From Calditrichia bacterium (GTDB lineage Bacteria > Calditrichota > Calditrichia > RBG-13-44-9 > J075), in the NCBI GenBank assembly GCA_028284905.1, contig JANQQU010000010.1, forward strand, positions 1 through 64,000: DNA of 64,000 bases, given 5' to 3'. A model generated the notes under the pieces. It worked only from the letters and a program-made list of their open reading frames with translations. It had not been told where the DNA came from and ran no database searches. Below, piece after piece: positions 3,101 to 35,954 of the stretch. The position numbers and the translations under genes were made by a program. Positions within the stretch are counted from its first letter, which is position 1. Each line of letters opens with the position of its first letter.

Positions 3101-6100
3101 TTCGCATACCGAAGTCGTCCGGCAAACTAAATCTCCAATCATGCTGGCTGACAAAGTCCAGTGAAGCATCAAACATGGTGGCGGCTAATTCCGCTGCGAC
3201 TTTTTCTCCTTTCGGACCTTTGATGCGTATCTGCCAATTCTCTTTACTGCCCGGGGCGATGGTATGTCTGATTGCCTCGGTGAAAATTTGTAAATCCCGC
3301 GATGGCTCCGGAATTTCCACATTCTTTACAAATTCGTAAAAGCGGTTATTTTTGACAAAGAAGATGTTGATGAGCACTTCGCCTCGTTGGTTTTTCTGGA
3401 AAGAATACTGGATATGCTGTTTGCCCCGCTTTGCCCACTGCTGCCTGGCATCAACTAATTTTCCATTCAAATAAATTTCGCTGCAGGCAAATACTGAATC
3501 ATAGGGGGAAGACCAGAATACGCTAATTCCTTCCCTGTCTATTTTTTGGAGATGATGCCAAAAATGCTCCCCGGGCGGATGTTGCGGATCTTGATGAGAA
3601 TAAAGGGTGAAATAGCTTTGTTGCTCAATAAATTTGCCAAAGTTATCCCTCAGTTGTAATTCAATGAGATATTTCCCTTCCGGCCATTCTGATAGTGTCG
3701 TCGGGCGAATCGTTTCTGTCCCGGATATCTGAAGATCTTGCTGAAAGACCAGGGTGTCTTTGGGCCAATTTTGAAAGTCGTTTTCGTCTGCGCGGGGATC
3801 GAGGGGGAATTGGCGGCGATGTTCCTCTTCACTCAGTAGAAAGCGATCTGTTTTGACCCACAGTCGTTCCCTGTAGATGTTTTGGGGAGACCGTAATCGC
3901 CAAACCTGTAGCTTGCCAGCCGCAGCTGCGGAAACGTCATCGAGGTTTTTGCAACTTATTTTTAATGCCGGCGCATCCTCCTTGTTGATTATTTCCGGCC
4001 AGTCAATTTCTCCCTGCAGAGCGGGGCGCCCGACTGTCAGGGATGTTTCCAAATAGCGGGTTTCCCCGCTAGGATCGATGATGTCGGCTTCAATTCTGTA
4101 GGTCTGCAAGTTGGTCCGTTGCCAAACCTGTGCGCTATCCGGTTTACACCGAAAAGCGATGCGGAAAGTACCGTCGGTAGCGCTGAAGATCTCTCCCTGC
4201 TGCAACAATTGTGGATTTTTGCCCCGTACCGTTTTGTGGGCGGATTCGAAATAAATGCGATATGTAATCCGGGCATTATCAATCGGGAAGCCGGCGTACG
4301 CCTGCACAGTGCCGCTAACCATGGCCGAATCACCGGGCTGCCATTGTCCGGCATGGGGAAGAAAGCGTGCCTCAAATGTCGGCCGTTTATAGGCTTCTAC
4401 CCGAATCGCACCGTATCCTTTGGGGCTGGCATTGAGAAAAGACAGGCCGGTCATCATGTTTTCCGGTAGTTTAAATTCTCCGGAAAAAGCGCCGAAATCG
4501 TTGGTTCGAAAAGTTGCATTAGCGATTTTCTTATCGTTAACATCCTCCAAATGAACGTTGATTTTTTTATGGCGATAAATCTTGCTCTTATGATTTTGGG
4601 TTTTGATAGTTAGCCCTTTGAAATAAACAGTTTGTCCGGGGCGATATACCTTTCGGTCTGTAAAGAAAAAGGTTCTGATTTCTGTTTCCGATCCTTGGGT
4701 TCTGAAGCGGCTGGCTCTGAGGTTGAAAGATTCTGTGGAAAAAAGACGTTGCCCCTGGTAGCGAAAATCGACCTGGAAAGACTTGTAATTAAATCCCTTG
4801 CTTACAGTCGATTTTTTCAAAGAGATTCGCCCCTGTTTATCGCTGGCCGCGAGGGAAGTGCGGTGATAATGCCAGCTGCTATCCACATAACTATAATAAC
4901 CACTAATAAGGTCTGCGCTCACTCCTTGCAGCGGCATACCGCTTTCAATGTCAAAAACGTAGAGCGCCTGCTTGCCTTTTTCTTCAAACCGACTGATGTA
5001 GCTCATTTGGCTAACCCAGGTATGCGCGAGGGCAGTACCGGCGGAATCCGCAGAGAAGGATGAATCTGTCGAGGCAATAATCAAATGAAGCCCGGCTGGC
5101 ATTGCCGGTATCGCCACTTCCACGGAGTGAGGTAGGAAATCTCCATTATCCGGCAGCGTTAGTTGCCATTGACTATCCGGGGCCATCGCCAGAATTTTTT
5201 CATCGAGAACCCTCGGCAGGCGGTACATTTTTTGTGAATGGCGATCTCGCCGGGGAGACGTAAATGCTTCCGGCGTTGTCCGGATCGCACGAAAATAGAG
5301 CTGCTTAACATTGTGAAAATCGATTCTGGCGAGAATCGGTTTGTTCGGCGGATTGATCTCCGGCAGGCGGAGAGAAAGCTCCGGCCGGGTGATTTTCGAA
5401 ATCAACGCCCGGCAATTGTAATTGCCGATGTAATCCGGATAGCGGTTAATTGCTTCTTTACATATCTGATATGCCTGTTGTCTGTCGCTGAGCGAATCGA
5501 CGGGGGAAATATATCCCGGTCGGTCCCATTTCCAATAAACCGCTGCCCGTTGATAGCTGATATGCACCGAAGAAGGATCTTCCCGGAATGTATTTTCCAG
5601 CGTTGTTAAGGCGGAAAGGTAAAGACTGTCAGCATCAGAGCGGAGGGAAAATCTGTGGGCGATATTCAGGCGCTTCAGGGTGATATCCAATAAGGGCTGT
5701 TTCTCGGAAAGTTGATTGTGCAGTCGACTCAATTGCTGGCATTCCCAAATTGCCCGGGTAAAAAAATGGCTGCTATCAGAGAGCGGTAATTGCCAATGGT
5801 TAAATGCGTCCGGCAATGCGAATAGATTTTCATCATGAAGCAGCCCATTGCCAAATTGCGCGATGGCCGCTTCATCATTCATCCAGAAATTGAGCGCCCG
5901 GTGTGCCAATAGATCATATAATGTCGGGCGATAGATGGGCGACATTGACGACTTCAGCAGGATGTCATCATATTCTCTTAAAGGGATTTGGTATAATTTG
6001 GAACGATGTTCTAACGATGCCTGGTACAGCTGCGAAATACGTGTGATGAATTGATCGCGGTTCCAGGATTGGATGCCGGAAATGCCGTTTTCCAGGCGCT

Positions 6101-7800: not shown

Positions 7801-8778
7801 ATGCCAAGGCTAGTTTTGCTTTTTGCTCTTTTCTTTTCATTAAGTCCGCTTAGCAGCCAAACATTTTATAACAATCCCCTGGTGCATACCTATTCGATCG
7901 TTGCAATTGATACTGCAACCGGAGAAATTGGCGCAGCAGTACAGTCTCACTGGTTTTCGGTGGGGAGTATTGTGATCTGGGCGGAATCCGGCGTTGGCGC
8001 TGTTGCGACGCAATCGTTGGTAAATACCTCATTCGGGCCGCGTGGACTGGCGTTGATGAAACAGGGGATTTCCCCGGCGGCTGCCGGTAAGCTGATGCTC
8101 GATGAAGATGAAGGGCGCGGATACCGCCAACTAGCCCTGATCGATACAGAAGGCAATACATTCGCACATACCGGTAAAGATTGTATTCCCGCAGCTGGGC
8201 ATGTGAATCGTAAGAATTATTCGATTCAGGCCAATCTGATGCTAAAAAATACTGTTTGGGGCGCCATGGAAAAGGCCTTTCTGGAAACCGAAGGCCCGTT
8301 GGCAGAACGAATGGTCGCTGCGATGGTTGCCGCTGAGGAAGAAGGCGGCGATATCCGCGGTAAACAATCTGCGGCTTTGTTGGTGGTTCGTGGTGAGACA
8401 ACCGGCAATATTTGGGAAGACCGCCTTATCGACCTGCGCATAGAAGATCATTCCGAGCCGGTAAAAGAGATGCAGCGCCTGCTGAAAGTACATCGCGCCT
8501 ACGGACACATGAATGCCGGCGATGTCGCGATTGAGCACAGTGATGTCGATGGCGCACTGCGCGAATATGGCGCCGCCCAGGAGATGTTTCCGGATAATCT
8601 CGAAATGCAATACTGGACGGCAGTCTCGTTAGCCAATGCAAAACGGCTGGATGAAGCGATTCCCATGTTTAAAAAGATCTTCAAGAAAGATAATAACTGG
8701 AAGATTCTAACGCCGCGTCTGATTGATAATAATCTGCTGAATGTCAGCAAGGATGAATTGGATAAAATTTTAAACTGA
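7801..8778 (+). CDS. Exported DUF1028 family protein with TPR-like tail
   Basis: A 325-residue protein. The start at 7801 is chosen because ATTAGGAG precedes it and a clean signal peptide follows (LVLLFALFFSLSPLSSQ). Residues about 25-225 match DUF1028, an Ntn-hydrolase-like fold: HTYSIVAIDTATGEIGAAVQ, the GVGAVATQS stretch and a GRGYRQLALID strand. The C-terminal 100 residues (HRAYGHMNAGDVAIEHSD, MFPDNLEMQYWTAVSLANAK) form two or three TPR-like helix pairs. DUF1028 members are presumed peptidases or amidases of unproven activity. It is divergent from the Crp/Fnr gene and has no co-directional partner nearby. Confidence 0.88.
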   Translation: MPRLVLLFALFFSLSPLSSQTFYNNPLVHTYSIVAIDTATGEIGAAVQSHWFSVGSIVIWAESGVGAVATQSLVNTSFGPRGLALMKQGISPAAAGKLMLDEDEGRGYRQLALIDTEGNTFAHTGKDCIPAAGHVNRKNYSIQANLMLKNTVWGAMEKAFLETEGPLAERMVAAMVAAEEEGGDIRGKQSAALLVVRGETTGNIWEDRLIDLRIEDHSEPVKEMQRLLKVHRAYGHMNAGDVAIEHSDVDGALREYGAAQEMFPDNLEMQYWTAVSLANAKRLDEAIPMFKKIFKKDNNWKILTPRLIDNNLLNVSKDELDKILN

Positions 8779-9327
8779 TGCAAATTGTTCTTCAGCGATG
8801 CATCGTTTTATGTATGATCCAGTGAATATTAAAAGCTCTAATATTTTTTCGATTTATAAGACTCTAAAAAATAGGTGGTTAACAATGTTGTTACCTGGGT
8901 TGACCGAGCGCATAAGTTTAGGATTCTTTTAGAAAAAAACTTGTTTTTTTATATTATAATGATATATTGACTGGCATCTTTCTAAGGATGCGGACTTAAA
9001 TTCTTCAAAAACCATTGTTTTAATTTCCACCTTTTATACTCGCTATATGATTTGTTTTGTTAGGTCATACAAATAAGTCGGGTAAATAAAAAAGCGACAT
9101 TACGCAAAATAGTATATTGTATCTGAGGAGCGTCTCGCTATTGGCTATTGTGGGATTCGATTGTTACGCGCTTTACAAACCCCTTTTTTTATTTATCGAT
9201 TTCCAAACAACTGGATGTTTATCATCGGGATAAGGCTGTCGTTATTGCCGGATTTCCGCTGATATTGTTGTATTAATTTATATCCATAATTCATCTATCT
9301 TATCCATTAATCCAAAAGGAGTAATCC
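8779..9327. other. Intergenic stretch, about 550 bases, no gene seen
   Basis: AT-rich spacer without a convincing reading frame. It holds an A-run/T-run dyad near 8934-8952 and an imperfect dyad near 8878-8897 (GGTTAACA/TTGTTACC), neither of which I can assign. The end carries AAAAGGAGTAATCC, the ribosome site for the next gene. Its length would allow a long leader or a small RNA, but I see no recognisable family. Confidence 0.5.
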
Positions 9328-9732
9328 ATGAAGCATGCATGGCAAAGCCTTATCGCAGTGCTGTTGTTCTCCTTGCTTGCATTTGCTGGTGAAGGGCAGA
9401 AAAAAGTTCAGTCCGTCGACAAGCATAATGAAGACAAGCAGGTTGTGAACCAGACCACCGAAGTCAAGAAGATTACGGTTCGCAGCAACACTATTCATGC
9501 GGTAAAGAAAGCCCCCAAGGCAACTCGCACGAGTAGCCAGGCGCAGCGCGATCCTTCCGCCGTTGCCCCGGAAAAGCCGCAGCAGGTTGGTCAGCAAACA
9601 ACAACGACCAGCACAGCTAAGCCGGCGGTAACCAACGCCCAAAGAAGCAAAAAGAAGGTGGTTACCAATGTAGAGGAACTTAAGAAGAGACGCGTAATTA
9701 AGAATGCCAAAAGCGATCAGTCCGATCGTTAA
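9328..9732 (+). CDS. Small secreted Lys/Thr-rich low-complexity protein
   Basis: A 134-residue protein with a signal peptide (AWQSLIAVLLFSLLAFAGEG, cleavage near residue 20) and a mature part rich in Lys, Gln, Thr and Ala with no predicted fold, ending in a basic tail (EELKKRRVIKNAKSDQSDR). The ribosome site AAAGGAG lies 8 bases upstream. It is followed 25 bases later by the giant sorted protein and probably shares its transcript. A highly basic, disordered exported partner could bind anionic surface polymer, but this is speculation. No family recognised. Confidence 0.8.
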   Translation: MKHAWQSLIAVLLFSLLAFAGEGQKKVQSVDKHNEDKQVVNQTTEVKKITVRSNTIHAVKKAPKATRTSSQAQRDPSAVAPEKPQQVGQQTTTTSTAKPAVTNAQRSKKKVVTNVEELKKRRVIKNAKSDQSDR

Positions 9733-9756
9733 AGTGCGAAATAATTGGAGGTAAAT

Positions 9757-12700
9757 ATGAGTACAAAATTCGGTACTTTTTTTACATTTCTTTTGATCAT
9801 GCTTTTTTCTGCGATGGTTTTCGCCAATGGCGATTATGAGCAGAAAAAGCGGATTGCAAAAGAAACAGAAGTAAATACTTACAATCAAAGTAAGGTGCGC
9901 TATGTAGCACCGAATTTGACTGAGACAGCACAATTGTTTGAAGATTTTGAAGACAATGCAGCCTTTCCGCCAGCAGGCTGGACTGAATATCATACTGGTC
10001 TTGATACATTGAATGCAGATACCACACGGTCATTCTCACCAGACTCATCTGCCCTTTTCGACGATGTCTCCGGTGTAGATTCCAGCTGGTTTGTTACCCC
10101 GCAAATTGTTGGGTTAAATGCAAATTCAGCATTAACCTTTTGGCAAAATCAAAATTTTGGTTCCTGGTTTGAATACCATGGTATTTGGGTATCAACGGGC
10201 AGTGGAGACCCGACTAGTGGCGATTTCGTTGAAGTGGCTTCATTAGGAGCTGGCACGGAAGATACCTGGGAAAAAGTTACTGTTGGGCTTGACGCATATG
10301 CTGGTCAGGATATCTATATTGCTTTCCTGTATACCGGTAGTTTTGCCGACGAATGGTTTCTTGATGATATTTCTGTTGATGAAGCGACAACGGATTTAGC
10401 GGTAACCGAAGCGATTGGTTTGCCCTCATCTACATCTGCAGGTGCTACGGTAAACTTTGATGTTGTCGTTAATAATGTTGGTGGCACGGAAGTTTCCGGA
10501 GCCATGCTGGATATCTGGGTAAACGGTTCAGTGACTTCAACTTTACCGGTTGCGACCCTGGCTTCCGGCGCTGCTGATACGCTCAATGCTTCTTTTACAG
10601 CATCTGCGTCGGTTGGCGCAACGGATGTTGTTGCTGCTGCATTACAAATGGTTAGCGGCGATGATAACCAGACCAATGACACCCTTGCCGCCGGCAGTGT
10701 TACTATTGCACCGAGTTCGGTTTCTACTATTAACGAAGATTTCGAGGGCAATGGTTCCTTTCCGCCGCTTGGCTGGTCGGAATATCATACCGGTGTTGAT
10801 GCATTAATTGCAACTACGGTCCGTTCTTTCTCTCCGGATTCCGCAGCACTGTTTAGCGATGTCTCTGGTGTTGATACCAGTTGGTTTATTACACCAAAGA
10901 TTGCCAATGTCGGTGCTGATTTTGTGCTGAGTTTCTGGCAAAACCAGAATTTTGGTGCACTTTATTATGAATATCACGCTATCTGGGTATCAACCGGTAG
11001 TGGGGATCCGGCCAGTGGTGATTTTGTAGAGCTTGATTCTCTTGGTGTTGGTACAGAAGATACCTGGGAAAGATTAAGTGTGTCTCTGGCTGCTTATGAA
11101 GGTCAGGATATTTATCTTGCTTTTGTATATTTCGGTAGTTTTGCCGATGAATGGTACCTCGATAATATTGTTGTTGACGCAGCCCAGACAGATCTTGCTG
11201 TTTCGGAATTTCTCGATCTACCTGGATCTGCCGGGGGTAGCGCAACCGTGAACTTCGACGTTGTTGTAAACAACGCAGGTGATACGGAAGTTGCTGGTGC
11301 AATGCTGGATATCTGGCTGAATGGCGGGGTGACCTCAACCCTGGCAGTAGCAACACTCGCTTCTGGTGCAAGCGATACAATAGCAGCCTCGATTACAACT
11401 TCTACTTCCGGCACAGATGCTGTCGCCGCAGCACTGCAGGCAGTTTCTGGTGACGATAATCAGAGTAATGATACATTGGCTGCTAGTATTACAATTCTCT
11501 CCGGCCTGTCTTTACCATTTGTAGAGATGTGGGATACTACGGCTATTAATGCAGAATCATGGCCCGATGTTGTTGGAGATGTAGAGGTTCTGGATGCAAC
11601 TGGGACAGCTTCAACAAATGATTTCCCGTTTGCTGTACCTTCCGAACCCTACTTCCTTGCACTTAGCGATGATCCGACCTCAATAACGTCAGGCACTTTT
11701 GATCTGGCTGATTCAAGCGGATACGTTGTTTCCTTTTATGAGTCTGAGCATGATCTGGAGATTGGTAAAGATGTTATTATAGAATATCTGAATGATGTTG
11801 CTGAATGGGATACACTTGTTTATTTCCCCGGTACAAATAATGGCTTTGGTGTATTCGAGCCCTTTGAAAAGCACATTTATCCGTTACCGGCTGATGCCTA
11901 TCATGACGGTTTCAGAATTCGCTTTAGCACTGTCGGCGCATTATTCTCTACCGATCAGTGGTATTTTGACGATATTAGAATTGAGCCTCACCCAACAGAT
12001 ATTGCAACTATCTCTTATAGTTATCCTATGTTGACACAGATTCCTGTAAGTCAGCCAGGAGTACTCTCTGCAGTTGGTCTTAATGCGACTTATCGCAACC
12101 TCGGCGATGCGAGTAATACTGGTGATGTTACTGTAGAAGTATGGAATTCTGCTGCGTCTTCAGTTTATAGTGATGCAAATAGTGGCGTAACCATTGATGC
12201 ATTAAGCGATAGCGCTTTTGGTTTTAATGCCTGGAATGCTTCTTCTGCTGATACAGGAGATTATAGTATTGTCTATTCACATACTAATTTCCAGGATAAT
12301 GATGCTTTCAACAACGAATTAAGTACGCCGCTAAGTATCAGAAACACAATGGCATATGATAAGGGAAATTATTCTCTAAATGGATCTGTAAACTCAACTG
12401 GAAGAGGTTGGTATTCCACAAGATTTTCTTTGACTGATGAAGATACGCTTGTTGGAGTTACCATGGTGTTAACTACCAGCACCGAGCCAACAGATTCTTT
12501 TGCCGTTCAAGTATGGTCTGTCGAAAATGATACACCTTCAGTGCCAATGGCGACAGTATACAAAGGTACTTATGGCGACTTCACTCTGCCTGCATTTATT
12601 ACTTTCGAGGTTCCTGGCGGTATGGTATTACCAGCAGGCGATTTTGCGGTAGTTCTTGATGCTATTGAGGCAACCAGAGCTGCAGGAACATTCCCGATTG

Positions 12701-25831: not shown

Positions 25832-26800
25832 CTACGTTGAGAAACCAAGCATATACCAGCGCGGCTGGCGCCTGATGCCCGGGAAAGAGTGAAACATCGT
25901 TAAGTCTTCCCGTGGGCTGCTGGGGCGCTCTAAAGGCGTATGTTTGCTACGTAAAGACAAGAGGCGCTCTACCCGCTCTTTCGTGGGCGGATGGGTGCGC
26001 AGCAATGCAGATGATGGCATCCGCCTCGCCGGGAAGAAAAACCGCCGAAAAAAACCAGTCTGGTAGTACTCCAGCTTTTTCAACGCAGCAGCGAGACCTT
26101 CCGGATCCCCGGTAAGGGTGGCTGCACCAAGATCTGCATTAAACTCCCTGGTGCGGGAAAGTGCCAGCTGTAACAGGTTACTGAGGGTTGGCGCTGCGAT
26201 CAGGGTCAGGATCGCCAGCCAGGAAATGGTTGACTGTCCCAGTAACATCAACGGGAGATTGAAGATCAGCAGAATCTGCCCAAGCATCGACAGCATCCCG
26301 GTCATTCTACCAATCATATTGGCAATGCCCATTACTCGAATATCATTGTTGCGGATATGGCTCATTTCATGGGCCAGCACCCCGGTAAGCTCACGCATAT
26401 TTAGTCGTTTGATCAAAGCATCGGTAACTGCAATGGCGGCATTGTTCCGCTGACCGATCGCAAATGCGTTCATGATATTACTGGGAATATAGTATAAGTT
26501 TGGTGCCTTCCCCAGGCCAGCCCGCCGGGCGAGTTCCTGGATAATGTTATATAATTCCGGGGCCTGATGAATCTGCAGCAAGCGGGCCTTGTGCATCCGC
26601 AAAATAAATTGTGGTGAAATACCCGGACTGAGCCAAAGCATGATCCCACCGAAGACAATTGCCCAGATAATTCCTTCCACACCAGCAAAGAGATAGCCGA
26701 GCAATGCGGTTACCAGTGCCATTCCACTGAGTATCAAAGCGGTATGCAGCATGTTGTTAATGGTATGATTAACTATTTTTTCCTGCTGTAAGTAAAACAT
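25832..26800 (-). CDS. htpX: HtpX-type M48 zinc metalloprotease
   Basis: A 322-residue membrane protease. Two N-terminal spans (about 18-57: LILSGMALVTALLGYLF and IIWAIVFGGIMLW) precede the zinc site HEMSH (His144, Glu145, His148). Two more hydrophobic segments follow (about 170-210), then the third-ligand region ALSRTREFNADLGAA with the E-x-x-x-D pattern. HtpX degrades misfolded membrane proteins from the cytosolic side. It is somewhat longer than typical HtpX through a C-terminal basic tail (KHTPLERPSSPREDLTMFHS to the end). It faces the kinase operon tail to tail and is separated by about 200 bases from the ABC permease gene downstream in the window. Confidence 0.9.
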   Translation of the reverse strand: MFYLQQEKIVNHTINNMLHTALILSGMALVTALLGYLFAGVEGIIWAIVFGGIMLWLSPGISPQFILRMHKARLLQIHQAPELYNIIQELARRAGLGKAPNLYYIPSNIMNAFAIGQRNNAAIAVTDALIKRLNMRELTGVLAHEMSHIRNNDIRVMGIANMIGRMTGMLSMLGQILLIFNLPLMLLGQSTISWLAILTLIAAPTLSNLLQLALSRTREFNADLGAATLTGDPEGLAAALKKLEYYQTGFFRRFFFPARRMPSSALLRTHPPTKERVERLLSLRSKHTPLERPSSPREDLTMFHSFPGIRRQPRWYMLGFST

Positions 26801-26998: not shown

Positions 26999-28468
26999 TT
27001 AGCGTACATCATAGCGGATGAATCCGCTGAATGCGCCGGCGAACGCAATTAGGGTAAAGAAAATCAGTAAAGCGAGGTCGGTCATTGCTGGCGTGATGGC
27101 CGCCGAGTATGAATGTCTTGGATCTTCAAAGCGGGGAACTTCACTGAGATCAAGGCTTTTCGTGTCAATGTCGCCAGTATCGATGTTCACGCCGGTTTCG
27201 CTACTGATGCTGATGCGAAATCCGCCATGCTGGCCGGAATCCTCCAGCTTTTTGTTGACAAAACCGTTGAAGGCAGTGCGATAATCCCGCATGGCATCTT
27301 CGTAACGATTCTTCAGGTTGATATCCGTTGCAGCGAGATTCATCATCGCCAGCTGATAGGCGGAAGCCGGTGAAACGCGCGAGAGAAGAAAGGCCAGCTT
27401 TTCCTGGGCCGCCCGACGGTTACGCAAGTCTTCCTGAAGCTTACGGCCGTATTCGGAAATGTCTGCCTGAACATTCTTCATTTCAGCATCGTCTTCTTCC
27501 ATCCAACTCCACATCTTTTCTTCTTCATATGCTTCACGATCTTCTGGAGATAATCCTTCCATTGCTGCATTACGCTTCTCATATCTCTCCGAGATCAATG
27601 CACTATGCTGATCCCAGCGTTCCTGGCTGAACTTGGCATGCTTGCTTTCTATCTCCGCGACGGTTGGAACAGATTGTACCTGTCCGGCAAGCATAACACC
27701 CGCCCGGGGAATGATGAGTACCAAGGTTACCCAGGCAACCAAAAGGATCAGAAATGAGCTTGAAGAAGAACGGGTAAGGGCAGAAACCATCAGACCAAAT
27801 GCAATGAAGAAAGTAAAGAATAACAGGGAAAATCCCAGCATGGTGATGATCTTTGCCCAATGGACACCGGTCAACGGCAGATTATAGAGCATTACCAACA
27901 GCAGACCGATGAGAATAGGGATCAATAACGGAATTACCAATCCCAGCCAGGCGCCAATAAATTTAGAAAGAATATAGGTCACTTTCGGGACCGGATTGGC
28001 AAAAGTGAGTTTCAAAGTGCCTTGTTCCCGTTCGCCATTTATAGCATCATATGTGAAGAGTATTGCCAGCAATGATAGGGCAATCTGCACAATGAAAGTG
28101 AAATCGATAAAGCGAAACACCGCAAATATTGGATCATCGGAATAGTTGCTGCGACGGAGCTTAATTTCCTCCCATCTGCTGATGCCAGTCATGCGGCCGA
28201 CGTCATAATGAATGCCGGAGACAAAGATTTGCATGGGATCCGGCTGACGAAAAACCCGGGTATCAAAACTTCCCCAGGAAGTTGATTCTGCCATTTCCTG
28301 ATCGTTCAACTGCACGGCGGTTTCATATTGGCGAACCGCACCGCGATATTCCTGGATACCGATGAAAATACTCAGCAGGATCAATACCGCGCAAGTGCCG
28401 AAGGTGGCAGTGAATTTCGGACTGGCGATAATCATTTTCAGTTCTTTATAAATAAGCGTTTTAAGCAT
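26999..28468 (-). CDS. ABC-2 type transporter permease, paralogue B
   Basis: A 489-residue permease: an N-terminal span (TFGTCAVLILLSIFIGIQ), a periplasmic segment, a block of spans (about 135-265, including IALSLLAILFTYDAINGERE and VAWVTLVLIIPRAGVM), a second large charged helical periplasmic segment (about 270-440) and a last span (LALLIFFTLIAFAGAFSGFI). NGEREQGTLKLTFANPVPK is the cytoplasmic coupling segment typical of ABC2_membrane_2 permeases. It is the last gene of a five-gene minus-strand run (PDZ, adaptor/NEW3, ATPase, permease A, permease B), 17 bases after permease A, with which it shares the whole layout and surely pairs as a heterodimer. Confidence 0.88.
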   Translation of the reverse strand: MLKTLIYKELKMIIASPKFTATFGTCAVLILLSIFIGIQEYRGAVRQYETAVQLNDQEMAESTSWGSFDTRVFRQPDPMQIFVSGIHYDVGRMTGISRWEEIKLRRSNYSDDPIFAVFRFIDFTFIVQIALSLLAILFTYDAINGEREQGTLKLTFANPVPKVTYILSKFIGAWLGLVIPLLIPILIGLLLVMLYNLPLTGVHWAKIITMLGFSLLFFTFFIAFGLMVSALTRSSSSSFLILLVAWVTLVLIIPRAGVMLAGQVQSVPTVAEIESKHAKFSQERWDQHSALISERYEKRNAAMEGLSPEDREAYEEEKMWSWMEEDDAEMKNVQADISEYGRKLQEDLRNRRAAQEKLAFLLSRVSPASAYQLAMMNLAATDINLKNRYEDAMRDYRTAFNGFVNKKLEDSGQHGGFRISISSETGVNIDTGDIDTKSLDLSEVPRFEDPRHSYSAAITPAMTDLALLIFFTLIAFAGAFSGFIRYDVR

Positions 28469-28485
28469 GGTTTTTACCTACTGTT

Positions 28486-29895
28486 TTAGCGTACGTCGTA
28501 TTTTAAAAATGAGACAAAGGCGCCAGCGAAGAAAATCAGGTTGAAGAGCGTCAACAGGCCGAGGTCTCCCATTGCTGCCCCGAGCGATGCGCCAATGGTC
28601 GGGCGCCGGTATTCAAATGCCGGAATTTCTGTGGGATCTATCGGTGGAGGCTGATTTTCCTCGCCACCCATGCGGCGCATAATGAAGCCGCCGCTCTTCA
28701 GCATGCCGCCGGTTTTTTCCTTGAAGAAATTACTGTATGTTTGCTGATAGGATTTCACCGCATCCATATAATGCTCCTTCAGGGAAAGCGAAGTACCGGC
28801 CAAATTCATTGAAGCCAGGGAGAATGCGGCAGTGGGGGAGAGGCGGGCGAGCCAGAAGGAAAGTTGCTGCTGCTGTAGCTGGCCATTGCGCCGTTGCTCA
28901 TAAAGCTTGCCGCTAAGTGCCTGCATCTTTTTTTGCCGTTCCTCGGCCTGGTCCTGCATAAAACGATTGAACTCATCAAGCACCTTTTGAACATCTTCCG
29001 TCGATGGTTTAAAATCTTTCATCGTTTTACGATCTTCTTCCCAGAGCTGGGACATTAAACGGCTTTTCTGGGTGGCGATTTCATCTACCGGGAGCACATC
29101 GACGGCTCTGCCCGCGAGTAAAACAGCGGTACGGGGGATGATTAGTACCGCGAACATCCAAAGAATTAGCATCAGCAAAAAGGAATTCGCCGAGCGATGC
29201 GTGAGTGTGGATACCCAGGTAGAAAGCGTCAGAAATACGCCGAAATAGAGGAAGCCGGCGAGAATGATCAGGGCAAGTTTCTGCCAGTCATTGCCGTCCA
29301 TGGGGATTCCCATCAGCGGTAACAATAAACTACCGAGCAGAATGGGAATGAGTAGCGGGAGCGCGAGCGCCAGAAAGGAGCCGATGAGCTTTCCGAGAAT
29401 AAAGGTATCCTTGGGAATAGAATTGGCAAATGCCAGACGGAGTGTGCCCTGCTCCTTCTCACCGTTGATCGCATTATATGCAAATAAAATGGCGAAAAGC
29501 GAGAGGATGACCTGGAAAATAAAATCCAGATCGAGAAAGCGGAAAACGGCAAAAATAGGATCGTCATTAAACCGGCTGTCTTCTGCGGTAAGTTCTCCGC
29601 GGCCATGGATTTCCACGTTGCGGCCAATGTCGTTAGAGATACCGGTAACCAGTGAGGATACCGGATTCGGCGGCATAAAAACATGATGTTCCACCATCAT
29701 CCAATCGGTAATGCCTTCCATTTGCCGCAGGTTTTCGGCGACGGCGGCATCGTGCTGAACACGACTGACCTGGTAATTGCGGGCGCCGACGTAAAAGGCA
29801 AGGATGATCAGCAGGGCGCAGACGCCGAAGGTGACAGCGAATTTCGTCGACCCGATGATATCCCGAAGTTCTTTTTCTATAATTGTTCGTAACAT
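28486..29895 (-). CDS. ABC-2 type transporter permease, paralogue A
   Basis: A 469-residue protein with the same topology as the next gene: N-terminal span (TFGVCALLIILAFYVGA), coupling segment (NGEKEQGTLRLAFANSIPK), central spans, a long Gln/Arg-rich helical periplasmic region (about 275-400) and a C-terminal span (LLTLFNLIFFAGAFVSFLKY). The ribosome site CAGGAG is strong. Ending both paralogues in YDVR suggests a duplication. The big extracytoplasmic segments are the likely contact for the periplasmic PDZ and NEW3 proteins encoded upstream. The substrate is unknown. Confidence 0.88.
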   Translation of the reverse strand: MLRTIIEKELRDIIGSTKFAVTFGVCALLIILAFYVGARNYQVSRVQHDAAVAENLRQMEGITDWMMVEHHVFMPPNPVSSLVTGISNDIGRNVEIHGRGELTAEDSRFNDDPIFAVFRFLDLDFIFQVILSLFAILFAYNAINGEKEQGTLRLAFANSIPKDTFILGKLIGSFLALALPLLIPILLGSLLLPLMGIPMDGNDWQKLALIILAGFLYFGVFLTLSTWVSTLTHRSANSFLLMLILWMFAVLIIPRTAVLLAGRAVDVLPVDEIATQKSRLMSQLWEEDRKTMKDFKPSTEDVQKVLDEFNRFMQDQAEERQKKMQALSGKLYEQRRNGQLQQQQLSFWLARLSPTAAFSLASMNLAGTSLSLKEHYMDAVKSYQQTYSNFFKEKTGGMLKSGGFIMRRMGGEENQPPPIDPTEIPAFEYRRPTIGASLGAAMGDLGLLTLFNLIFFAGAFVSFLKYDVR

Positions 29896-29949
29896 TATTG
29901 CTCCTGAAAGTTAATTGGTTCAGCGCTGAAAGTTCATAAGCCAGATTTT

Positions 29950-30744
29950 TTATCCAACCGTTACTGATGCGTCTGTTGCCTGAACCGCAGTGTCCATATA
30001 GCCAGTCATATACTCTACATAGAGCTTTTCGAGATCTTCGCCCACCAGTTCTTCGCGTTGTTTTTCCGCGACCAGTTTGCCGGCATTCATAATACCGACA
30101 ATATCAGCCACCTGTTTTGCGCGGAAGATATCGTGGGTAGACATCAGGATTGCTTTACCTTCGTCGCGTAAATCCTGGAGCAGATTGATAAATTCCATCC
30201 CGGCTTTCGGATCCAGGCCAGAGGTGGGTTCATCCAGCAGGATAGCCGGTGCATCTTTCAGGATCGCAATGGCGATCCCGCATTTTTGGCGCATCCCTTT
30301 CGAATAGGAGCGGAGCTTTTTATCATGGGCTTCTTCCTGCAGGCCAACCCGGAGGAGCACTTTCTGGTAGTCCTCAGCGCTGTAGCTGGTCTTTCCGCCA
30401 AGATGCGAGAAGTAATCGAGGTTCTGCAATGCGGTAAAGTTCGGATAAAGCATCACATTCTCGGAAACGTAGGCGATCTTCGCTTTGGCCTTTAGCGGCT
30501 CCTGATGGGTGATGATGCCATCGACAATCGCTTCTCCTTCAGTCGGATCGATGAAGTTCAGGAACAGGTTGATCGTGGTGGTTTTTCCGGCGCCGTTTCC
30601 TCCGAGCATCGCGTATATTTGTCCGGGATTGACAGAAAGATCGAGGCTGTCCAGCGCGAGGACGCCGTCTTCATAGCGTTTACTGAGATTTCGGGTGGCC
30701 ATCATCGGCTGGATGGTTTCCGGGGTGTTTTCTGGTGTTGTCAT
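29950..30744 (-). CDS. ABC transporter ATP-binding protein
   Basis: A 264-residue ATPase: Walker A GGNGAGKTT (about residues 48-56), signature SYSKGMRQK, Walker B AILLDEPTSGLD and the switch His in MSTHD. The form (LDSLDLSVNPGQIYAMLGGN) is that of ABC-2 exporter ATPases of the NatA/CcmA type. Ribosome site AAGGAC at 8 bases. It lies 54 bases ahead of permease A and would energise the A/B permease pair. Confidence 0.96.
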   Translation of the reverse strand: MTTPENTPETIQPMMATRNLSKRYEDGVLALDSLDLSVNPGQIYAMLGGNGAGKTTTINLFLNFIDPTEGEAIVDGIITHQEPLKAKAKIAYVSENVMLYPNFTALQNLDYFSHLGGKTSYSAEDYQKVLLRVGLQEEAHDKKLRSYSKGMRQKCGIAIAILKDAPAILLDEPTSGLDPKAGMEFINLLQDLRDEGKAILMSTHDIFRAKQVADIVGIMNAGKLVAEKQREELVGEDLEKLYVEYMTGYMDTAVQATDASVTVG

Positions 30745-30769
30745 GTTTTTGTCCTTGGTTTCTCGGTAG

Positions 30770-30877
30770 GCGTCTTTGACGCGTACCGGGTTCTGTCGTG
30801 GAACCGCTTTGCGGTATTTTTTAGCGGGCGTCTTTGATGCTTACCGGATTTGGTTTTGTAACCGCTTTGCGGTAATC
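30770..30877. repeat. 58-bp tandem duplication carrying hairpins inside the ABC operon
   Basis: Two imperfect copies (from 30770 and 30828) each contain GCGTCTTTGA-GC-TACCGG and a hairpin core ACCGCTTTGCGGT. They fill the spacer between the NEW3-domain gene and the ATPase gene, the only long gap in an otherwise tight run. A role in mRNA processing or differential expression within the operon is possible. Confidence 0.88.
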
Positions 30878-30882
30878 TTTGT

Positions 30883-32376
30883 TTATTTTCGGGAGAGGCG
30901 GATGCCGAAGATGACGATGCCGGCGACCAGGCCAATGATCAGGAGAATGATGATCGCTGTGCCTAGAATATTGGCTTCCGGTAAAATCTCCACGGTAATA
31001 GTTTTGTCCTCACCATTGATGGGCTGACCTTCCGAAAAAGATGTGGTGCGCGCCCGAATTTCGTATTTGCCGGGAATAATGTTCGCCGCCGGTGTAATCG
31101 CGATCTGAAATGTTTTCTCCTGACCGATCTCCAATGCGGGAATGATAGTTGGATTCACTGCCCATTCCCAGTTTAGGGGCGGGTCGATTTCGATTTCGAT
31201 ATTATCGAGGCGACGCGAACCCTCATTTTTTACATCCAGGCGGACAGCGATGGTTTCGCTGGTGCCGGCGGAATAGTAAAGCTGTGGTGCTTTTACCAGC
31301 AGTTCACCGATGCCGCGCGGCACAACTTCCATCCGGACGAATCCGACATTCAGCGCTTCAATTTCTGCCTGCGTCCACTGGCGGCCGCGTATGTTGCCGA
31401 GTGTTTTCCGCTGCTCCTGGGGAATCACCAGCACGTAGAATACCAGCGGTTGATCCATGCTGACGTCATCGGTGGGGCGGTCGGGCAAGTCGACCATCAG
31501 GCGGGCGCTGCGGGTATTGGTCGATTCCGTGAATTTGAACTGACTGAGCCGTGCCTGGCCACTAACGTCGGTAAAATAACTGTTAATCTGCCGCGGCAGG
31601 TTGACCACTTCCAGCTTGAAAGTGTTATTCAATCCGCTGAACAACTCCAGGGTAAGATCGAAGGCGGCGGATTTGCCCAGTTCGATTTCCTGGGAAAACT
31701 GCTCGGATTGCACCAACACTTTATTGACGCTGGCGTCCTTTTGCAGGTAGATTTTCGGACTGCGCTGCGTACCACTACCATAGACTAAATTAACGACGAC
31801 CGCATCGAGATCCTGCAGCAGCTCGAACTCTATGTTGGTCGGCTTACCATGCACCAGCTGATCGATCTTCGCTTCATACGGTTGGCTGATGATGGCATTT
31901 TCGTCGTTGAGCAGTGAGACATAAATATTGTTCACAACATCCGGCTGCAGGGCATTAAACAGTTCATCATCAATATTGATCAGCTTACGATATTCGGCAT
32001 TGCCGCCGGATGCATTTTTCAGTGTAAGACGAACAAATTTTCGCCCGTCCTTACCCTGGTATTTCACGGCCTTCTCTACAGTGACATACTGCTGTTCGAA
32101 GAGTACTGCCAGCAAGGATTGCTGAAAATTCACTTCTGCATCGGCAAAATCCCGCCGGCTTTTTTCCAGCTCATCTGCAGATACCAATTCAGCATCGAAC
32201 AGCCTTTTTTGTCGCTCCAGATCTGCTTTCGCCGCTTCGAAGGTGCTTTTGGCGCGCTTCAAACCAAGGAGACGATATTCATCATCCCGCTGATTAAAAG
32301 GGGTGCCATACTGTCCGAAGAGCGAGGCGCCTATGAAAAGGCTGCAAATGAAGATAAGTAGATAATTCGTTTTCAT
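30883..32376 (-). CDS. Membrane-anchored periplasmic protein with adaptor-like helical hairpin and NEW3 domain
   Basis: A 497-residue protein. After a signal peptide (LLIFICSLFIGASLFGQ) residues about 30-90 form a helical hairpin of the HlyD/RND-adaptor style (AAKADLERQKRLFDAELVSA then DELEKSRRDFADAEV). Residues about 95-360 are several beta domains without a clear family. A NEW3-type domain (DNIEIEIDPPLNWEWAVNP, LEIGQEKTFQIAITPA, about 375-465) follows, then one C-terminal span (AIIILLIIGLVAGIVIFGI). This is an unusual union: adaptor hairpin plus sugar-enzyme-type Ig domain, anchored by its C-terminus. Its place ahead of the ATPase argues that it is the periplasmic partner of the ABC-2 permeases. 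Confidence 0.82.
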   Translation of the reverse strand: MKTNYLLIFICSLFIGASLFGQYGTPFNQRDDEYRLLGLKRAKSTFEAAKADLERQKRLFDAELVSADELEKSRRDFADAEVNFQQSLLAVLFEQQYVTVEKAVKYQGKDGRKFVRLTLKNASGGNAEYRKLINIDDELFNALQPDVVNNIYVSLLNDENAIISQPYEAKIDQLVHGKPTNIEFELLQDLDAVVVNLVYGSGTQRSPKIYLQKDASVNKVLVQSEQFSQEIELGKSAAFDLTLELFSGLNNTFKLEVVNLPRQINSYFTDVSGQARLSQFKFTESTNTRSARLMVDLPDRPTDDVSMDQPLVFYVLVIPQEQRKTLGNIRGRQWTQAEIEALNVGFVRMEVVPRGIGELLVKAPQLYYSAGTSETIAVRLDVKNEGSRRLDNIEIEIDPPLNWEWAVNPTIIPALEIGQEKTFQIAITPAANIIPGKYEIRARTTSFSEGQPINGEDKTITVEILPEANILGTAIIILLIIGLVAGIVIFGIRLSRK

Positions 32377-32413
32377 GATATACATTCACTTTCAGAGTAG
32401 AGTTAAGTATAGA

Positions 32414-33151
32414 TTACTGGCGCCGCATCATTACCCTGCCGGGAGATTTCGGCTTGTTGAATTTGGCAGTAAGTGTTTCACCATCTCTTTTGTATTGCAC
32501 TGTTACCTTGTCGCCAATCGCCAGTGCAGCGTAAACCGTTTGAAAATCAGCCGTCGTTTTCACAGCAGTGTCGTTGATGGATACAATGACATCGTCACTT
32601 TGGAAATCCGCACCTTCCGGCGCCTCGCCGGGCATTCCCTTCAGGTCGCCAACGGTAACGCTACCGTCTTCACCCTGGAGCATGATGTGTAATCCCGGCA
32701 GCGGCAAAATATCACTCTCTCCACCGGGGCCACCACTGGTTGCAATCTGGAAATGCATTTTCGGGGCATTGGCCGGATCGATCTTTGGGAAATCGACAAT
32801 AAACATTTTGCCATCCCGCCGAACGCCCAGCTTTACGGCATCGCCAACAGCCAGCGCTTCATAGGCATTTTTTAAATCTTCGGTTTTCTTGATGCGCTTG
32901 CCATTCATCATCAATATTTCATCATTCGATTTTGCGTCAATATCTTTGTAACCGTCCGGGCGGCGTTCGCCATCCATTACCACCAAAAAACTAACTTTCT
33001 CGCCATCGCCGGCAACAATTGCACCGAGCTCCGCCAGTTGGAAGGGCTCGCCTTCGATCGACATTTCCGAACTGCTTTGACGAACAATACTTTGGGCATG
33101 AATGCTGATACTCATTGACAACAATACAAATAATACGGCTAGATATTTCAT
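32414..33151 (-). CDS. Exported double-PDZ protein without protease domain
   Basis: A 245-residue protein with signal peptide (YLAVLFVLLSMSISIHA). Two PDZ-like domains are visible: about 55-130 (DAKSNDEILMMNGKRIKK) and about 150-238 (SDDVIVSINDTAVKTTADFQ), each with the ligand-loop and DxIxxINxxxV pattern. No catalytic domain is present, so it probably recognises C-termini or disordered tails in the periplasm. Strong ribosome site (AAGGAG). First gene of the ABC run, 37 bases ahead of the NEW3 gene, and downstream of the BlaI/M56 pair on the same strand. Confidence 0.87.
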   Translation of the reverse strand: MKYLAVLFVLLSMSISIHAQSIVRQSSSEMSIEGEPFQLAELGAIVAGDGEKVSFLVVMDGERRPDGYKDIDAKSNDEILMMNGKRIKKTEDLKNAYEALAVGDAVKLGVRRDGKMFIVDFPKIDPANAPKMHFQIATSGGPGGESDILPLPGLHIMLQGEDGSVTVGDLKGMPGEAPEGADFQSDDVIVSINDTAVKTTADFQTVYAALAIGDKVTVQYKRDGETLTAKFNKPKSPGRVMMRRQ

Positions 33152-33392
33152 TAGGCGTCTCCTTGGAAATAAGTTTGGAATTTGGACAAAAATTACCTGT
33201 CAGACTTTGCGCTATCCCTGATGCCCGGAAGGTGCAGCACCATAGGGGGTCTTCTCGCGATAATTCTTTTAGTGAATCTTTAGATCAAATTTTACAAGTA
33301 CATAGCTCACCTGTCGCTATGGCCGAAAAATGCCATAACTGCTTATAAAACACTACTAATTCTTTGCTGAAAAGGCGTAGTTATCCCGTCGC

Positions 33393-33432
33393 CTATCCTG
33401 ATAAAGGTGAGTTAGGGTAATTATCAGGATAG
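33393..33432. other. Hairpin 3' of the M56 gene
   Basis: Perfect 12-base arms CTATCCTGATAA and TTATCAGGATAG with a 16-base loop lie about 30 bases downstream of the M56 stop. There is no U-run, so it may cause pausing or protect the 3' end rather than terminate. The surrounding 310-base gap (33152-33463) must also hold any promoter of the PDZ-ABC run; nothing else was recognised there. Confidence 0.6.
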
Positions 33433-33463
33433 AATGCTGAAATGTCCCTCAAGTCGGTTTTTG

Positions 33464-35260
33464 TTATTTCGTTACCGTCTTAAAAGCAAATCCTGTTTTG
33501 CCATCGGATGTATGCTGAAAGCCATTAACGGTTGCTTGTCTGCTAACTTTTACTTTAAACTGTTTCGGTTGTTTATCGACTGGCTGTAGCGATCCTTCCG
33601 TAGTATTTACCCAAATCTTTCGTGCCGTTTCCGAAGGAAGATTGTCGGTGATGTTGACGCTATCCAACATAAAAACATACATGTTTCCCTGAACGAAATC
33701 TGCAGACACCAAAGGGGCAGACCAGGTGAACAGCAACAGCAAGGAAAAAATTGCCAGCTGCGGCCAGCGTTTTGCCCGGGAATTTCTGGTTTGCGGGGAA
33801 TCGTCCAGGATGCGCACAACCCGTCGTTTCAGCACCGAACCACCGCTACTCATGGCGGCGGCATAACGATAGGTCGTTGCCGGTTTCAGCCATTCGGCGA
33901 CCTGGGTAAGGCAGCGGGCAAGATTGATATGCTGACCGGTGTGTATCACCGCCCAGTCGTCACAAAGATATTCGGCGCTTTCCTGATAACCACGTCGAGC
34001 AAAACGATTTAGCGGCTGAAAGAAAAAGAGAATATCCAACATCGCTGCAAATTTTAGCCAGAGCGGATCACGACGAACAATATGCGCCATTTCATGGGCG
34101 AGCATCGTTTGCTGCTGCTCGGCATTCAATTCTTTTAGAGCCCGGCTGGGAATACAGATTTCCCGGGACGAAATGGCCATCGGGCTACTGATATTTGCCG
34201 ATATTGAAAGGTGAACCGGGCGCTTCAGTCCGGCCTTCTTCTCCAGCTGATTGGCCAGTATCGATAAAGGACCGCTGGTTAATGGCTGACGATCTTTTAG
34301 CAGATTGCGGAGTCTTTTCCAGCCTAGAAAATAGCGAAATCCAAAAAACAGACTGCCGCATAACCAGAAAATAGTGACCCAATGCAGCCAGCTGAAATCA
34401 TACAAGGTGATTTGATGAAAAGCGTTTTGTTTCGTCAAAGAAACATGTTGGCCGAGCATTCCGGAGATGGCATTTGCCGAACCGGCAGCAAATGAATCGG
34501 AAGAAACGAAATACGAAGAAGAAAGCGCAACACTGGCGGTAACGGAATCTTCCGGCAAATCTGTTATTAACATGCCAATGGCAGAAATTGAATCGCTGAA
34601 AGTTTCTGCTATTTCCGGTAAATGCATTTTCAGCGTTGTGCCTTGCGGGTTATCCTGGAAAGCATCTATCGCCTGCCGTTTGATCATGATTTTATTCGGC
34701 TTTGCTGAATATTCCTTCCCTGCTTCGTCACTGGAAAAGCTGAAAGAATAACTGAGGTGATTGCCGTTATTCTGACCATCCGGCTTCGCAGACCAGCTTT
34801 GGCTTTGAAATACGGCGCCATTTTCGCTGCTTTGAAATGCACCCTTGCTGCTAAGCATTTCTTTCCGGGCAGCAGGAATAGTGCAGTTATCAAAGAAAGT
34901 AGAGGAGGTTCTGCAGGAATCCAGAACCGTGGCCAGGGAGGCATCCATCTGTGCCGTTTCTTTCAGCTTGTTGATAACCGCTTCATTATCCATATCACTG
35001 GATGAAGATAGCAAATGCTTGCCGCCTACTGGCTCCAACCCGCTGAGCAATTGCAGGGAAGTAGTAAGAATCGCGCCGAGTAGTGCTGCTTTCCAGAGCG
35101 TGTTTTTCAATCCGGGATCGCGGGGATTAAGGATCATGGTAACCAACCAGATGCAGCTAATCAGCAAAGTGCTGTGAATCGCATAAGTCAGCAACCAGGT
35201 GACAAAACCGGGAATAATAGGATTTATTGCAGTGAAAATAGGCAGTAGCAACTCATTCAT
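33464..35260 (-). CDS. BlaR1-type M56 metallopeptidase sensor
   Basis: A 598-residue membrane protein. Spans at about 14-43 (VTWLLTYAIHSTLLISCIWL) and 54-70 are followed by a long polar insert of about 220 residues (about 75-290), then a span (HWVTIFWLCGSLFFGFRYF) and the M56 zinc-protease core with HEMAH (His389, Glu390, His393) and ESAEYLCDD as third ligand region. A last span (LAIFSLLLLFTWSAPLVSA) precedes a 90-residue periplasmic tail. There is no penicillin-binding sensor domain, so the signal is not a beta-lactam bound as in BlaR1. By family knowledge it cleaves or inactivates its BlaI-like partner, whose gene overlaps its start by four bases (ATGA). Confidence 0.92.
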   Translation of the reverse strand: MNELLLPIFTAINPIIPGFVTWLLTYAIHSTLLISCIWLVTMILNPRDPGLKNTLWKAALLGAILTTSLQLLSGLEPVGGKHLLSSSSDMDNEAVINKLKETAQMDASLATVLDSCRTSSTFFDNCTIPAARKEMLSSKGAFQSSENGAVFQSQSWSAKPDGQNNGNHLSYSFSFSSDEAGKEYSAKPNKIMIKRQAIDAFQDNPQGTTLKMHLPEIAETFSDSISAIGMLITDLPEDSVTASVALSSSYFVSSDSFAAGSANAISGMLGQHVSLTKQNAFHQITLYDFSWLHWVTIFWLCGSLFFGFRYFLGWKRLRNLLKDRQPLTSGPLSILANQLEKKAGLKRPVHLSISANISSPMAISSREICIPSRALKELNAEQQQTMLAHEMAHIVRRDPLWLKFAAMLDILFFFQPLNRFARRGYQESAEYLCDDWAVIHTGQHINLARCLTQVAEWLKPATTYRYAAAMSSGGSVLKRRVVRILDDSPQTRNSRAKRWPQLAIFSLLLLFTWSAPLVSADFVQGNMYVFMLDSVNITDNLPSETARKIWVNTTEGSLQPVDKQPKQFKVKVSRQATVNGFQHTSDGKTGFAFKTVTK

Positions 35261-35649
35261 TTTTGCTGCTCCTCATTTTCTTTTTCATCAATTAATGATT
35301 TGATGTTTTCCAGATCATCATCAGCAATATCCGATTCTTTCACCAGATGACTGACCATTGCGGCAACATCTCCCTGGAATAATCTGCCGACCAGATCCCG
35401 GACCATGGAACGGCGCACTTCAGTCTCCGATACTTGTGGACTGTAAATGTATTGACGGCTTTCGGTGCGATGAGAAATCAACCCGCGTTTTTCCAGGCGG
35501 GAGAGCATGGTGGAAACCGTGGTTGGTGCTAGTTCGCGGTTTTGCTGAATCAAAGTATTATGGACTTCCGAGACACTCGCCTCCTGAAGTTCCCAAAGCA
35601 CTCGCATGATCGCCATTTGCAGTTCGCTTAATGTTTTGTCTTTTGGCAT
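35257..35649 (-). CDS. BlaI/MecI-type winged-helix repressor
   Basis: A 130-residue repressor: residues 5-80 form the winged helix (LSELQMAIMRVLWELQEASV, LAPTTVSTMLSRLEKRGLIS with the recognition helix, SRQYIYSPQV), and the C-terminal helices (RRSMVRDLVGRLFQGDVAAM) make the dimer. BlaI proteins repress their own operon until cut by the M56 partner. Two dyads that fit the BlaI-type operator lie 35-60 bases upstream. Overlap with the M56 gene shows co-translation. Targets likely include this operon and perhaps the PDZ-ABC genes that follow. Confidence 0.95.
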   Translation of the reverse strand: MPKDKTLSELQMAIMRVLWELQEASVSEVHNTLIQQNRELAPTTVSTMLSRLEKRGLISHRTESRQYIYSPQVSETEVRRSMVRDLVGRLFQGDVAAMVSHLVKESDIADDDLENIKSLIDEKENEEQQK

Positions 35650-35683
35650 CGGTAGTTCCTGTTTTAGTCACGTTTTTAAGTAT

Positions 35684-35708
35684 TACACGTGTAGTTCTAC
35701 GCGTGTAG
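35684..35708. promoter_or_regulatory. Double dyad, probable BlaI-type operator
   Basis: TACACGTGTA (35684-35693, perfect palindrome) and CTACGCGTGTAG (35697-35708, near-perfect) have centres 14 bases apart, 35-60 bases upstream of the repressor start. They resemble the TACA/TGTA half-sites of BlaI/MecI operators. Two adjacent sites fit autorepression by two dimers. This is a sequence resemblance only. Confidence 0.8.
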
Positions 35709-35854
35709 TATATGAAGGTTCCAAAAAAAATTCAAGCAGGAAAATAATTTTTTTGAAAAAAGTATTCTGATGATTGAATGTGTTGGGAAACAGGTGTTTA
35801 GAAAAGAAAGGCGGCTGTAAGGTATATGTTGATTGTGTCCTGAAATGCAATTAT

Positions 35855-35944
35855 CTGTCATCGCGAGGAGTATTGCGACGAAGCGATCTCTTTATGGATA
35901 CACCTTATGAGATTGCTTCGGCAAATAACGCCTCGCAATGACAG
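35855..35944. repeat. 90-bp imperfect palindromic intergenic element
   Basis: The arms CTGTCATCGCGAGGAG...GAAGCGATCTC and GAGATTGCTTCG...CCTCGCAATGACAG fold into one long imperfect hairpin, abutting the stop of the S9 peptidase gene. The sequence style (CATTGCGAGG...GAAGCAATCTC) is one I know from REP-like elements scattered in many bacterial genomes. It and the operator account for most of the 305-base gap 35650-35954. Confidence 0.88.
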
Positions 35945-35954
35945 AATCTTAAAC

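What the first reader, a model, noticed from the sequence alone, without database searches (positions are those of the whole stretch)
26999..35708. BlaI/M56 pair heading a PDZ, adaptor/NEW3 and ABC-2 exporter run
Seven same-strand genes start at a double dyad operator of BlaI type. The M56 sensor lacks a penicillin-binding domain and has a 220-residue insert and a novel tail, so the signal is unknown. This may be a proteolysis-triggered envelope export response.
Basis: partly seen in the sequence, partly recalled or inferred. Interest (0 to 1): 0.52.

Follow-up and report, generated by a model that had tools for sequence, protein, structure and literature searches.

The report
Exporter operon with swapped envelope sensor
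A conserved five-gene bacterial membrane-export cassette, elsewhere almost always paired with a two-component sensor, is here headed by a penicillinase-type repressor and a membrane protease, so the same machine appears to be wired to different kinds of envelope sensor.

Summary
The seven minus-strand genes are real: BlaI, M56 protease, double-PDZ protein, NEW3 protein, ABC ATPase and two ABC-2/DUF3526 permeases. The double dyad (35682-35709) abuts a sigma70-like promoter, TTGAAT-17-TATACT. Promoter, operator and all seven genes recur in order in another genus of the same family (G003), between different flanking genes. In the 8.55-Mb genome the dyad pattern occurs five times: two here, two at another blaI promoter, one inside a coding frame. 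So no distant regulon is visible, and chance adjacency is unlikely.

Among relatives the exporter core is widespread, but BlaI/M56 is not. Of 52 related core loci with at least 1.5 kb upstream, 47 have a divergent histidine kinase next door, 1 has BlaI/M56, and 4 have neither. On the NEW3 tree BlaI/M56 and two kinase types each mark one branch: a regulator exchange on one exporter.

M56 keeps HEXXH/EXXXD, lacks a penicillin-binding domain and has an enlarged, unconserved extracytoplasmic loop (about 195 residues). Most likely an envelope signal makes M56 cleave BlaI, de-repressing the exporter. The 312-nt M56-PDZ gap with a hairpin leaves a separate exporter promoter possible. Substrate and signal are unknown. 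New variant of a known kind.

The parts
35707..35735 (-). sigma70-like promoter TTGAAT-N17-TATACT of the blaI operon
   Evidence: the same arrangement TTGATT-N17-TATACT in G003. The scan alone is at chance level; conservation next to the operator is the evidence.
35682..35709 (-). double dyad operator ACTACACGCGTAGA + ACTACACGTGTAAT, two contiguous 14-mers
   Evidence: conserved in G003; core fits TACANNTGTA-type operators of the BlaI/CopY group (PMC7253601, passages)
35257..35649 (-). BlaI/MecI-type repressor, 130 aa
   Evidence: Penicillinase_R 113.7 bits; MecI 1okr E 9e-14; 61% identical to the G003 copy, at most 33% to the five own paralogues compared
33464..35260 (-). M56 membrane metalloprotease, 598 aa, HEMAH at 389 and EYLCD at 430; enlarged extracytoplasmic loop (about 79-272); about 80-aa tail, no penicillin-binding domain
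   Evidence: 4-nt overlap with blaI
33393..33432 (-). 12-bp hairpin in the 312-nt M56-PDZ gap, no U run after it; possible attenuator or mRNA stabiliser
   Evidence: (z -5.3); an unrelated hairpin at the same place in G003 (z -5.0)
32414..33151 (-). secreted protein with two PDZ domains, 245 aa
   Evidence: N-terminal hydrophobic segment
30883..32385 (-). NEW3 protein, 500 aa: signal segment, helical hairpin (31-98), beta-rich domains, C-terminal membrane helix (473-499); adaptor-like
   Evidence: weak hairpin matches to periplasmic adaptor proteins
29950..30744 (-). ABC transporter ATPase, 264 aa
   Evidence: ABC_tran 98.2 bits
28486..29895 (-). ABC-2 permease 1 (ABC2_membrane_2 + DUF3526), 6 hydrophobic segments, two large loops
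26999..28468 (-). ABC-2 permease 2 (ABC2_membrane_2 + DUF3526), 6 hydrophobic segments

Best explanation
This is an envelope-response operon. BlaI dimers sit on two tandem dyads that directly follow the -10 element of the operon's promoter and block transcription. A signal outside the inner membrane, read by M56 through its enlarged extracytoplasmic loop and short tail (it has no beta-lactam-binding domain), activates the cytoplasm-facing zinc protease, which cuts BlaI. Transcription then raises BlaI and M56 (feedback) and, by read-through of the M56-PDZ gap, a heterodimeric ABC-2 transporter with a membrane-anchored NEW3 adaptor-like protein and a periplasmic PDZ protein, which moves an unknown envelope-active or lipophilic substrate out of the inner membrane. 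The exporter core is an old module whose sensor was exchanged: most relatives carry a divergently transcribed two-component system instead. Shown by sequence: gene order, promoter and operator conservation, catalytic motifs, different regulators on different branches. Inferred: binding, cleavage, read-through, direction of transport. Unknown: signal and substrate.
For: The seven-gene order and the operator-promoter are conserved in G003, another genus of the same family, with different genes on both flanks. ACTACANNYGTARW has 5 sites in G000 (32 for the backwards control) and 3 in G003 (21 for the control); two in each genome are this operator, and the one site in each genome that lies at no blaI promoter is inside a reading frame. 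Among 40 genomes of the phylum the only M56 matching the window copy at 40% or more is the G003 one. HEXXH/EXXXD are present, the signature described for BlaR1 (PMC9834060, passages). The enlarged loop lies where BlaR1 has EL1 (residues 56-96), which that paper ties to signalling. In 47 of 52 informative relative loci a histidine kinase faces the cassette, so coupling to a membrane sensor is the rule. An outer-membrane efflux protein lies directly upstream of distant NEW3 homologues in L025 and L026.
Against: A 312-nt gap (116 in G003) with a hairpin separates M56 from the exporter genes in both genomes, and there is no dyad in either gap even at 2 mismatches; two chance-level promoter matches lie in the window gap. 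Only two genomes carry BlaI/M56 with the cassette. The MecI cleavage bond N101-F102 aligns with H-L here, so the cut is not predicted by identity. The NEW3 protein fails the RND_mfp cut-off (19.3 of 94.9 bits), and the fold search returned tandem beta-domain proteins rather than adaptors. No expression or biochemical data.
Confidence: 0.6

Rival explanations
1. Two transcription units: BlaI controls only blaI-M56, and the exporter genes run from their own promoter in the 312-nt gap. M56 may act on something else.
For: Gap of 312 nt with a hairpin after M56, and a similarly placed hairpin in G003; promoter-like matches GGGACA-17-GATAAT and GCGACA-17-TAAAAT in the gap.
Against: The matches are at chance level (6 found in the region, 4.0 expected) and none was found in the G003 gap. 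Neither hairpin was flagged as an intrinsic terminator on the transcribed strand. The order is kept in G003 despite different flanks.
Confidence: 0.22
2. The sensor is a cell-wall-damage or beta-lactam/muropeptide sensor in disguise: M56 or the PDZ protein reads peptidoglycan stress and the operon is a resistance response.
For: BlaI and M56 are the beta-lactam regulators in Firmicutes. Beta-lactamase-fold serine hydrolases (PF00144) lie inside or next to the cassette in L023, L071, L072 and L073.
Against: No penicillin-binding domain in M56; the window cassette holds no PF00144 protein; PF00144 members have many activities (recalled).
Confidence: 0.15
3. The five-gene core is not an exporter but an ABC machine for another envelope task, such as lipid extraction or protein-complex remodelling, with PDZ and NEW3 as docking parts.
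For: No outer-membrane channel gene is part of the window cassette; NEW3 is mostly tandem beta domains; weak GldF similarity of the permeases.
Against: Permeases and ATPase match ABC-2 exporter families; distant NEW3 homologues sit next to an outer-membrane efflux protein.
Confidence: 0.25
4. The adjacency of blaI-M56 and the exporter is accidental.
For: Most relatives lack BlaI/M56 at the cassette; none of the other six own blaI loci has the cassette.
Against: Seven-gene synteny and operator kept in a second genus between different flanking genes.
Confidence: 0.05

Closest known systems
BlaI-BlaR1 / MecI-MecR1 (staphylococcal beta-lactam response)
   Same: Repressor of the Penicillinase_R family, M56 protease with HEXXH and EXXXD, TACA/TGTA operator of the operon's own promoter
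   Different: No C-terminal penicillin-binding sensor; loop between TM2 and TM3 about 195 residues against 41 in BlaR1; downstream genes are an exporter, not a beta-lactamase or PBP2a
CopY/CopR copper-export operons
   Same: A BlaI-fold repressor with TACANNTGTA-type, often doubled, operators controls an exporter in its own operon (PMC7253601, passages)
   Different: The repressor here has no cysteine, hence no CXC metal motif, is below the CopY cut-off (82.1 of 121.95 bits), and is paired with a protease
Two-component system plus ABC exporter modules (BceRS-BceAB type; recalled)
   Same: A dedicated membrane sensor next to an ABC exporter; the relatives of this very cassette have this layout
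   Different: In the window the two-component system is replaced by repressor plus protease; permeases are ABC-2/DUF3526, not MacB/BceB type
GldFG / ABC-2 transporters with DUF3526
   Same: Permease and ATPase families
   Different: Below every equivalog cut-off shown; adds PDZ and NEW3 proteins

Membership tests
BlaI/MecI repressor family | Penicillinase_R domain over the whole protein | tested here: met
   113.7 bits against cut-off 22.6, residues 7-122
BlaI/MecI repressor family | TACA/TGTA dyad at the gene's own promoter | tested here: met
   two dyads at 35682-35709, conserved in G003
BlaI/MecI repressor family | inactivated by cleavage by its M56 partner | not testable with these tools
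   MecI N101-F102 aligns with H-L
BlaR1/MecR1 beta-lactam sensor | M56 protease domain with HEXXH and EXXXD | tested here: met
   HEMAH 389, EYLCD 430; BlaR1 8exs matched at E 9e-4
BlaR1/MecR1 beta-lactam sensor | C-terminal penicillin-binding sensor domain | tested here: not met
   no such domain; match to BlaR1 ends at window-protein residue 525 of 598; 64.9 of 400 bits for blaR1_generic
CopY/TcrY copper repressor | equivalog score and CXC metal motif | tested here: not met
   82.1 of 121.95 bits; no cysteine in the protein
ABC-2 transporter | ABC ATPase plus ABC2_membrane permeases over cut-off | tested here: met
Periplasmic adaptor (MFP/HlyD type) | family profile over cut-off | tested here: not met
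   RND_mfp 19.3 of 94.9 bits
Periplasmic adaptor (MFP/HlyD type) | antiparallel helical hairpin | tested here: inconclusive
   predicted helices 31-64 and 70-98; weak profile hits to adaptor chains 4l8j (E 0.0095), 4tko, 2k32
Two-component-system-linked exporter cassette | divergent histidine kinase and response regulator beside the cassette | tested here: not met
   absent beside the cassette in the window and G003; kinase present in 47 of 52 informative relative loci

The most novel reading that the evidence does not exclude
One exporter cassette has been wired, on separate branches of its own tree, to two unalike histidine-kinase systems and to a proteolytic BlaI/M56 switch, all placed at the same end of the cassette. 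The M56 here would be a non-beta-lactam envelope sensor reading, through its enlarged EL1 loop, the same stress that the kinases read elsewhere: a natural sensor swap between phosphorelay and repressor proteolysis.
Probability: 0.45. Interest if true: 0.6.

Novelty: new variant of a known kind. Interest (0 to 1): 0.43.

Why it matters
Few BlaI/M56 pairs outside beta-lactam resistance have a known signal (recalled). A sensor that replaces a two-component system in front of the same five-gene output allows a direct comparison: any stimulus found for the kinase version becomes a testable stimulus for the M56 version. It would also show that the switch 'repressor cut by a membrane protease' can take the place of a phosphorelay.

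Tried and rejected
Dyad as the mark of a wider regulon: rejected; in G000 only this operator, the C39 blaI promoter and one intragenic site match. Cassette at other own blaI loci: none of six. Orphaned cassette kinase left in G000/G003: not found among 8 of the 29 kinase hits examined (four of 15 in G000, four of 14 in G003), but the query was a type-A kinase only, so a diverged type-B orphan is not excluded. Sensor relatives of the M56 loop or tail: none among 4,510 ORFs. Fold search of the NEW3 model: uninformative, tandem beta-domain proteins of unrelated function, pTM 0.39. Literature: no paper holding 'NEW3 domain', 'ABC transporter' and 'permease' together; a DUF3526 search gave nothing useful; searches on BlaI/M56 listed mostly beta-lactam, copper or unrelated papers. 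I read passages of PMC9834060, PMC7593790, PMC7253601 and PMC8265638 only. A second structure job (M56) was not run: only the window's single sequence was clearly allowed, and it would probably give a poor model.

Full report
Observation. blaI and M56 overlap by 4 nt; the other gaps are 312 (M56-PDZ), 28, 138, 54 and 17 nt. The genome is an unnamed assembly, G000, 8.55 Mb in 93 contigs, with seven blaI-type genes and eight M56 matches, seven of them over the family's cut-off.

Operator and promoter. On the minus strand the promoter reads TTGAAT-N17-TATACT and runs into ACTACACGCGTAGA and ACTACACGTGTAAT, the first dyad sharing the last three bases of the -10. G003, another genus of the same family, has TTGATT-N17-TATACT and ACTACAGGCGTAGA and ACTACACATGTAAT at the same spacing. 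The promoter scan by itself is at chance level; conservation is the argument. The pattern ACTACANNYGTARW has five sites in G000 and three in G003, against 32 and 21 for the backwards pattern. In G000 two are this operator, two lie at the blaI promoter on contig C39 and one is inside a reading frame; in G003 two are the operator and one is inside a reading frame. The C39 repressor shares the motif type, so cross-talk between these two repressors is possible. The other four own blaI promoters that I read carry different palindromes (the promoter of L007 was not read).

The protease. M56 carries HEMAH (389) and EYLCD (430), the gluzincin signature described for BlaR1 (PMC9834060, passages). Solved BlaR1 aligns to residues 266-525, and nothing of the penicillin-binding domain follows. 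The long stretch at about 79-272 falls where BlaR1 has EL1 (residues 56-96), the loop tied to signalling in that paper. In the G003 orthologue the parts before and after are conserved (51% and 40% identity) but the loop is not. So the loop appears enlarged in both but evolves fast. The MecI cleavage bond N101-F102 aligns with H-L in the window BlaI and the G003 BlaI also reads H-L there.

The exporter core across genomes. NEW3 homologues were found in 7 of 192 relatives, 4 of 40 genomes of the phylum, 3 of 9, 8 of 386 (overlapping), 40 of 132 in a phylum that includes Zixiibacteriota records and 19 of 82; a separate scan of a named collection gave 7 loci. Counts use E at most 1e-30, those use 1e-8. 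Of the 60 related core loci, 46 extend at least 4.2 kb downstream of NEW3, and all 46 have the ATPase and both permeases.

The regulator exchange. Of those 60 core loci (window excluded), 52 have at least 1.5 kb upstream. In 47 a histidine kinase faces the cassette; in one (G003) BlaI/M56 heads it; four have neither (L020, L030, L069, L071). Kinases form two separate groups, A (42) and B (5), joined by long branches; relations between the groups are unsure because of those long branches, and A and B could be one old system that diverged. On the NEW3 tree of 65 sequences, A (41 rows), B (5) and BlaI/M56 (2) each need only one change, 17 rows being unlabelled; the three labels together are more clustered than in any of 200 shuffles, though near relatives make some clustering expected. 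The root is not fixed, so whether BlaI/M56 is derived is not shown. The window and G003 copies of the exporter are sisters (99/98).

Does the operator drive the exporter? For: the order is conserved in a second genus while flanks differ (M48 and S9 peptidases here; a transglycosylase-domain protein and a hybrid sensor kinase there), and no promoter match was found in the G003 gap. Against: the 312-nt gap, no dyad in either gap even at two mismatches, two chance-level promoter matches in the window gap, and hairpins of unrelated sequence after M56 in both genomes (z -5.3 and -5.0), neither flagged as an intrinsic terminator on the transcribed strand. I put co-regulation at about three in four (judgement).

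Function of the core. Permeases have six hydrophobic segments and two large loops. The NEW3 protein has an N-terminal hydrophobic segment, a predicted helical hairpin, beta domains and a C-terminal membrane helix (model pLDDT 71, pTM 0.39). Weak hairpin matches all go to periplasmic adaptors, but the family cut-off is not met, and the fold search is uninformative. Distant homologues lie just after an outer-membrane efflux gene in L025 and L026. An export function is therefore likely, not shown. In some other cassettes a beta-lactamase-fold hydrolase is inserted or adjacent (L023, L071, L072, L073), which keeps a cell-wall connection open.

Verdict. A real, conserved operon and a new variant of a known kind: the BlaI/M56 switch is known, the exporter families are known, and the new part is that one cassette is headed by either kind of sensor. 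In the papers that I could search I found no description of it.

Noticed in passing
window 35854-35945: Long imperfect hairpin repeat (z -7.3 as DNA) between the S9 peptidase gene and the operator; its core GAAGCAATCTC occurs six times in L071, so it looks like a dispersed palindromic repeat.
   Followed up: partly
window 30769-30880: 54-nt direct repeat, 81% identical, in the NEW3-ATPase gap, each copy with the small hairpin ACCGCTTTGCGGT near its end.
   Followed up: partly
L008, L009, L010, L011, L012: Other blaI/M56 pairs of the same genome each have their own palindromes at the promoter, e.g. AAAGGTGCGAAAAATTTCGCACCTTT in L012, which suggests insulated one-operon switches.
   Followed up: partly
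L010 5123-6187, next to the blaI match of L007: A shorter M56-like protein (354 aa) on contig C54 near its own blaI match, about 7 kb from a second blaI/M56 pair on the same contig.
   Followed up: no
L023 10338-11726; L072 4818-6416; L073 (minus strand) 8345-9811; L071 (minus strand) 7915-9378: PF00144 beta-lactamase-fold serine hydrolases inside or beside the exporter cassette in other phyla; L073 also holds an S41 peptidase at 4875-5894.
   Followed up: partly
window 25832-26800: An M48 peptidase with weak M56 similarity follows the operon on the same strand; it is absent at this place in G003.
   Followed up: no
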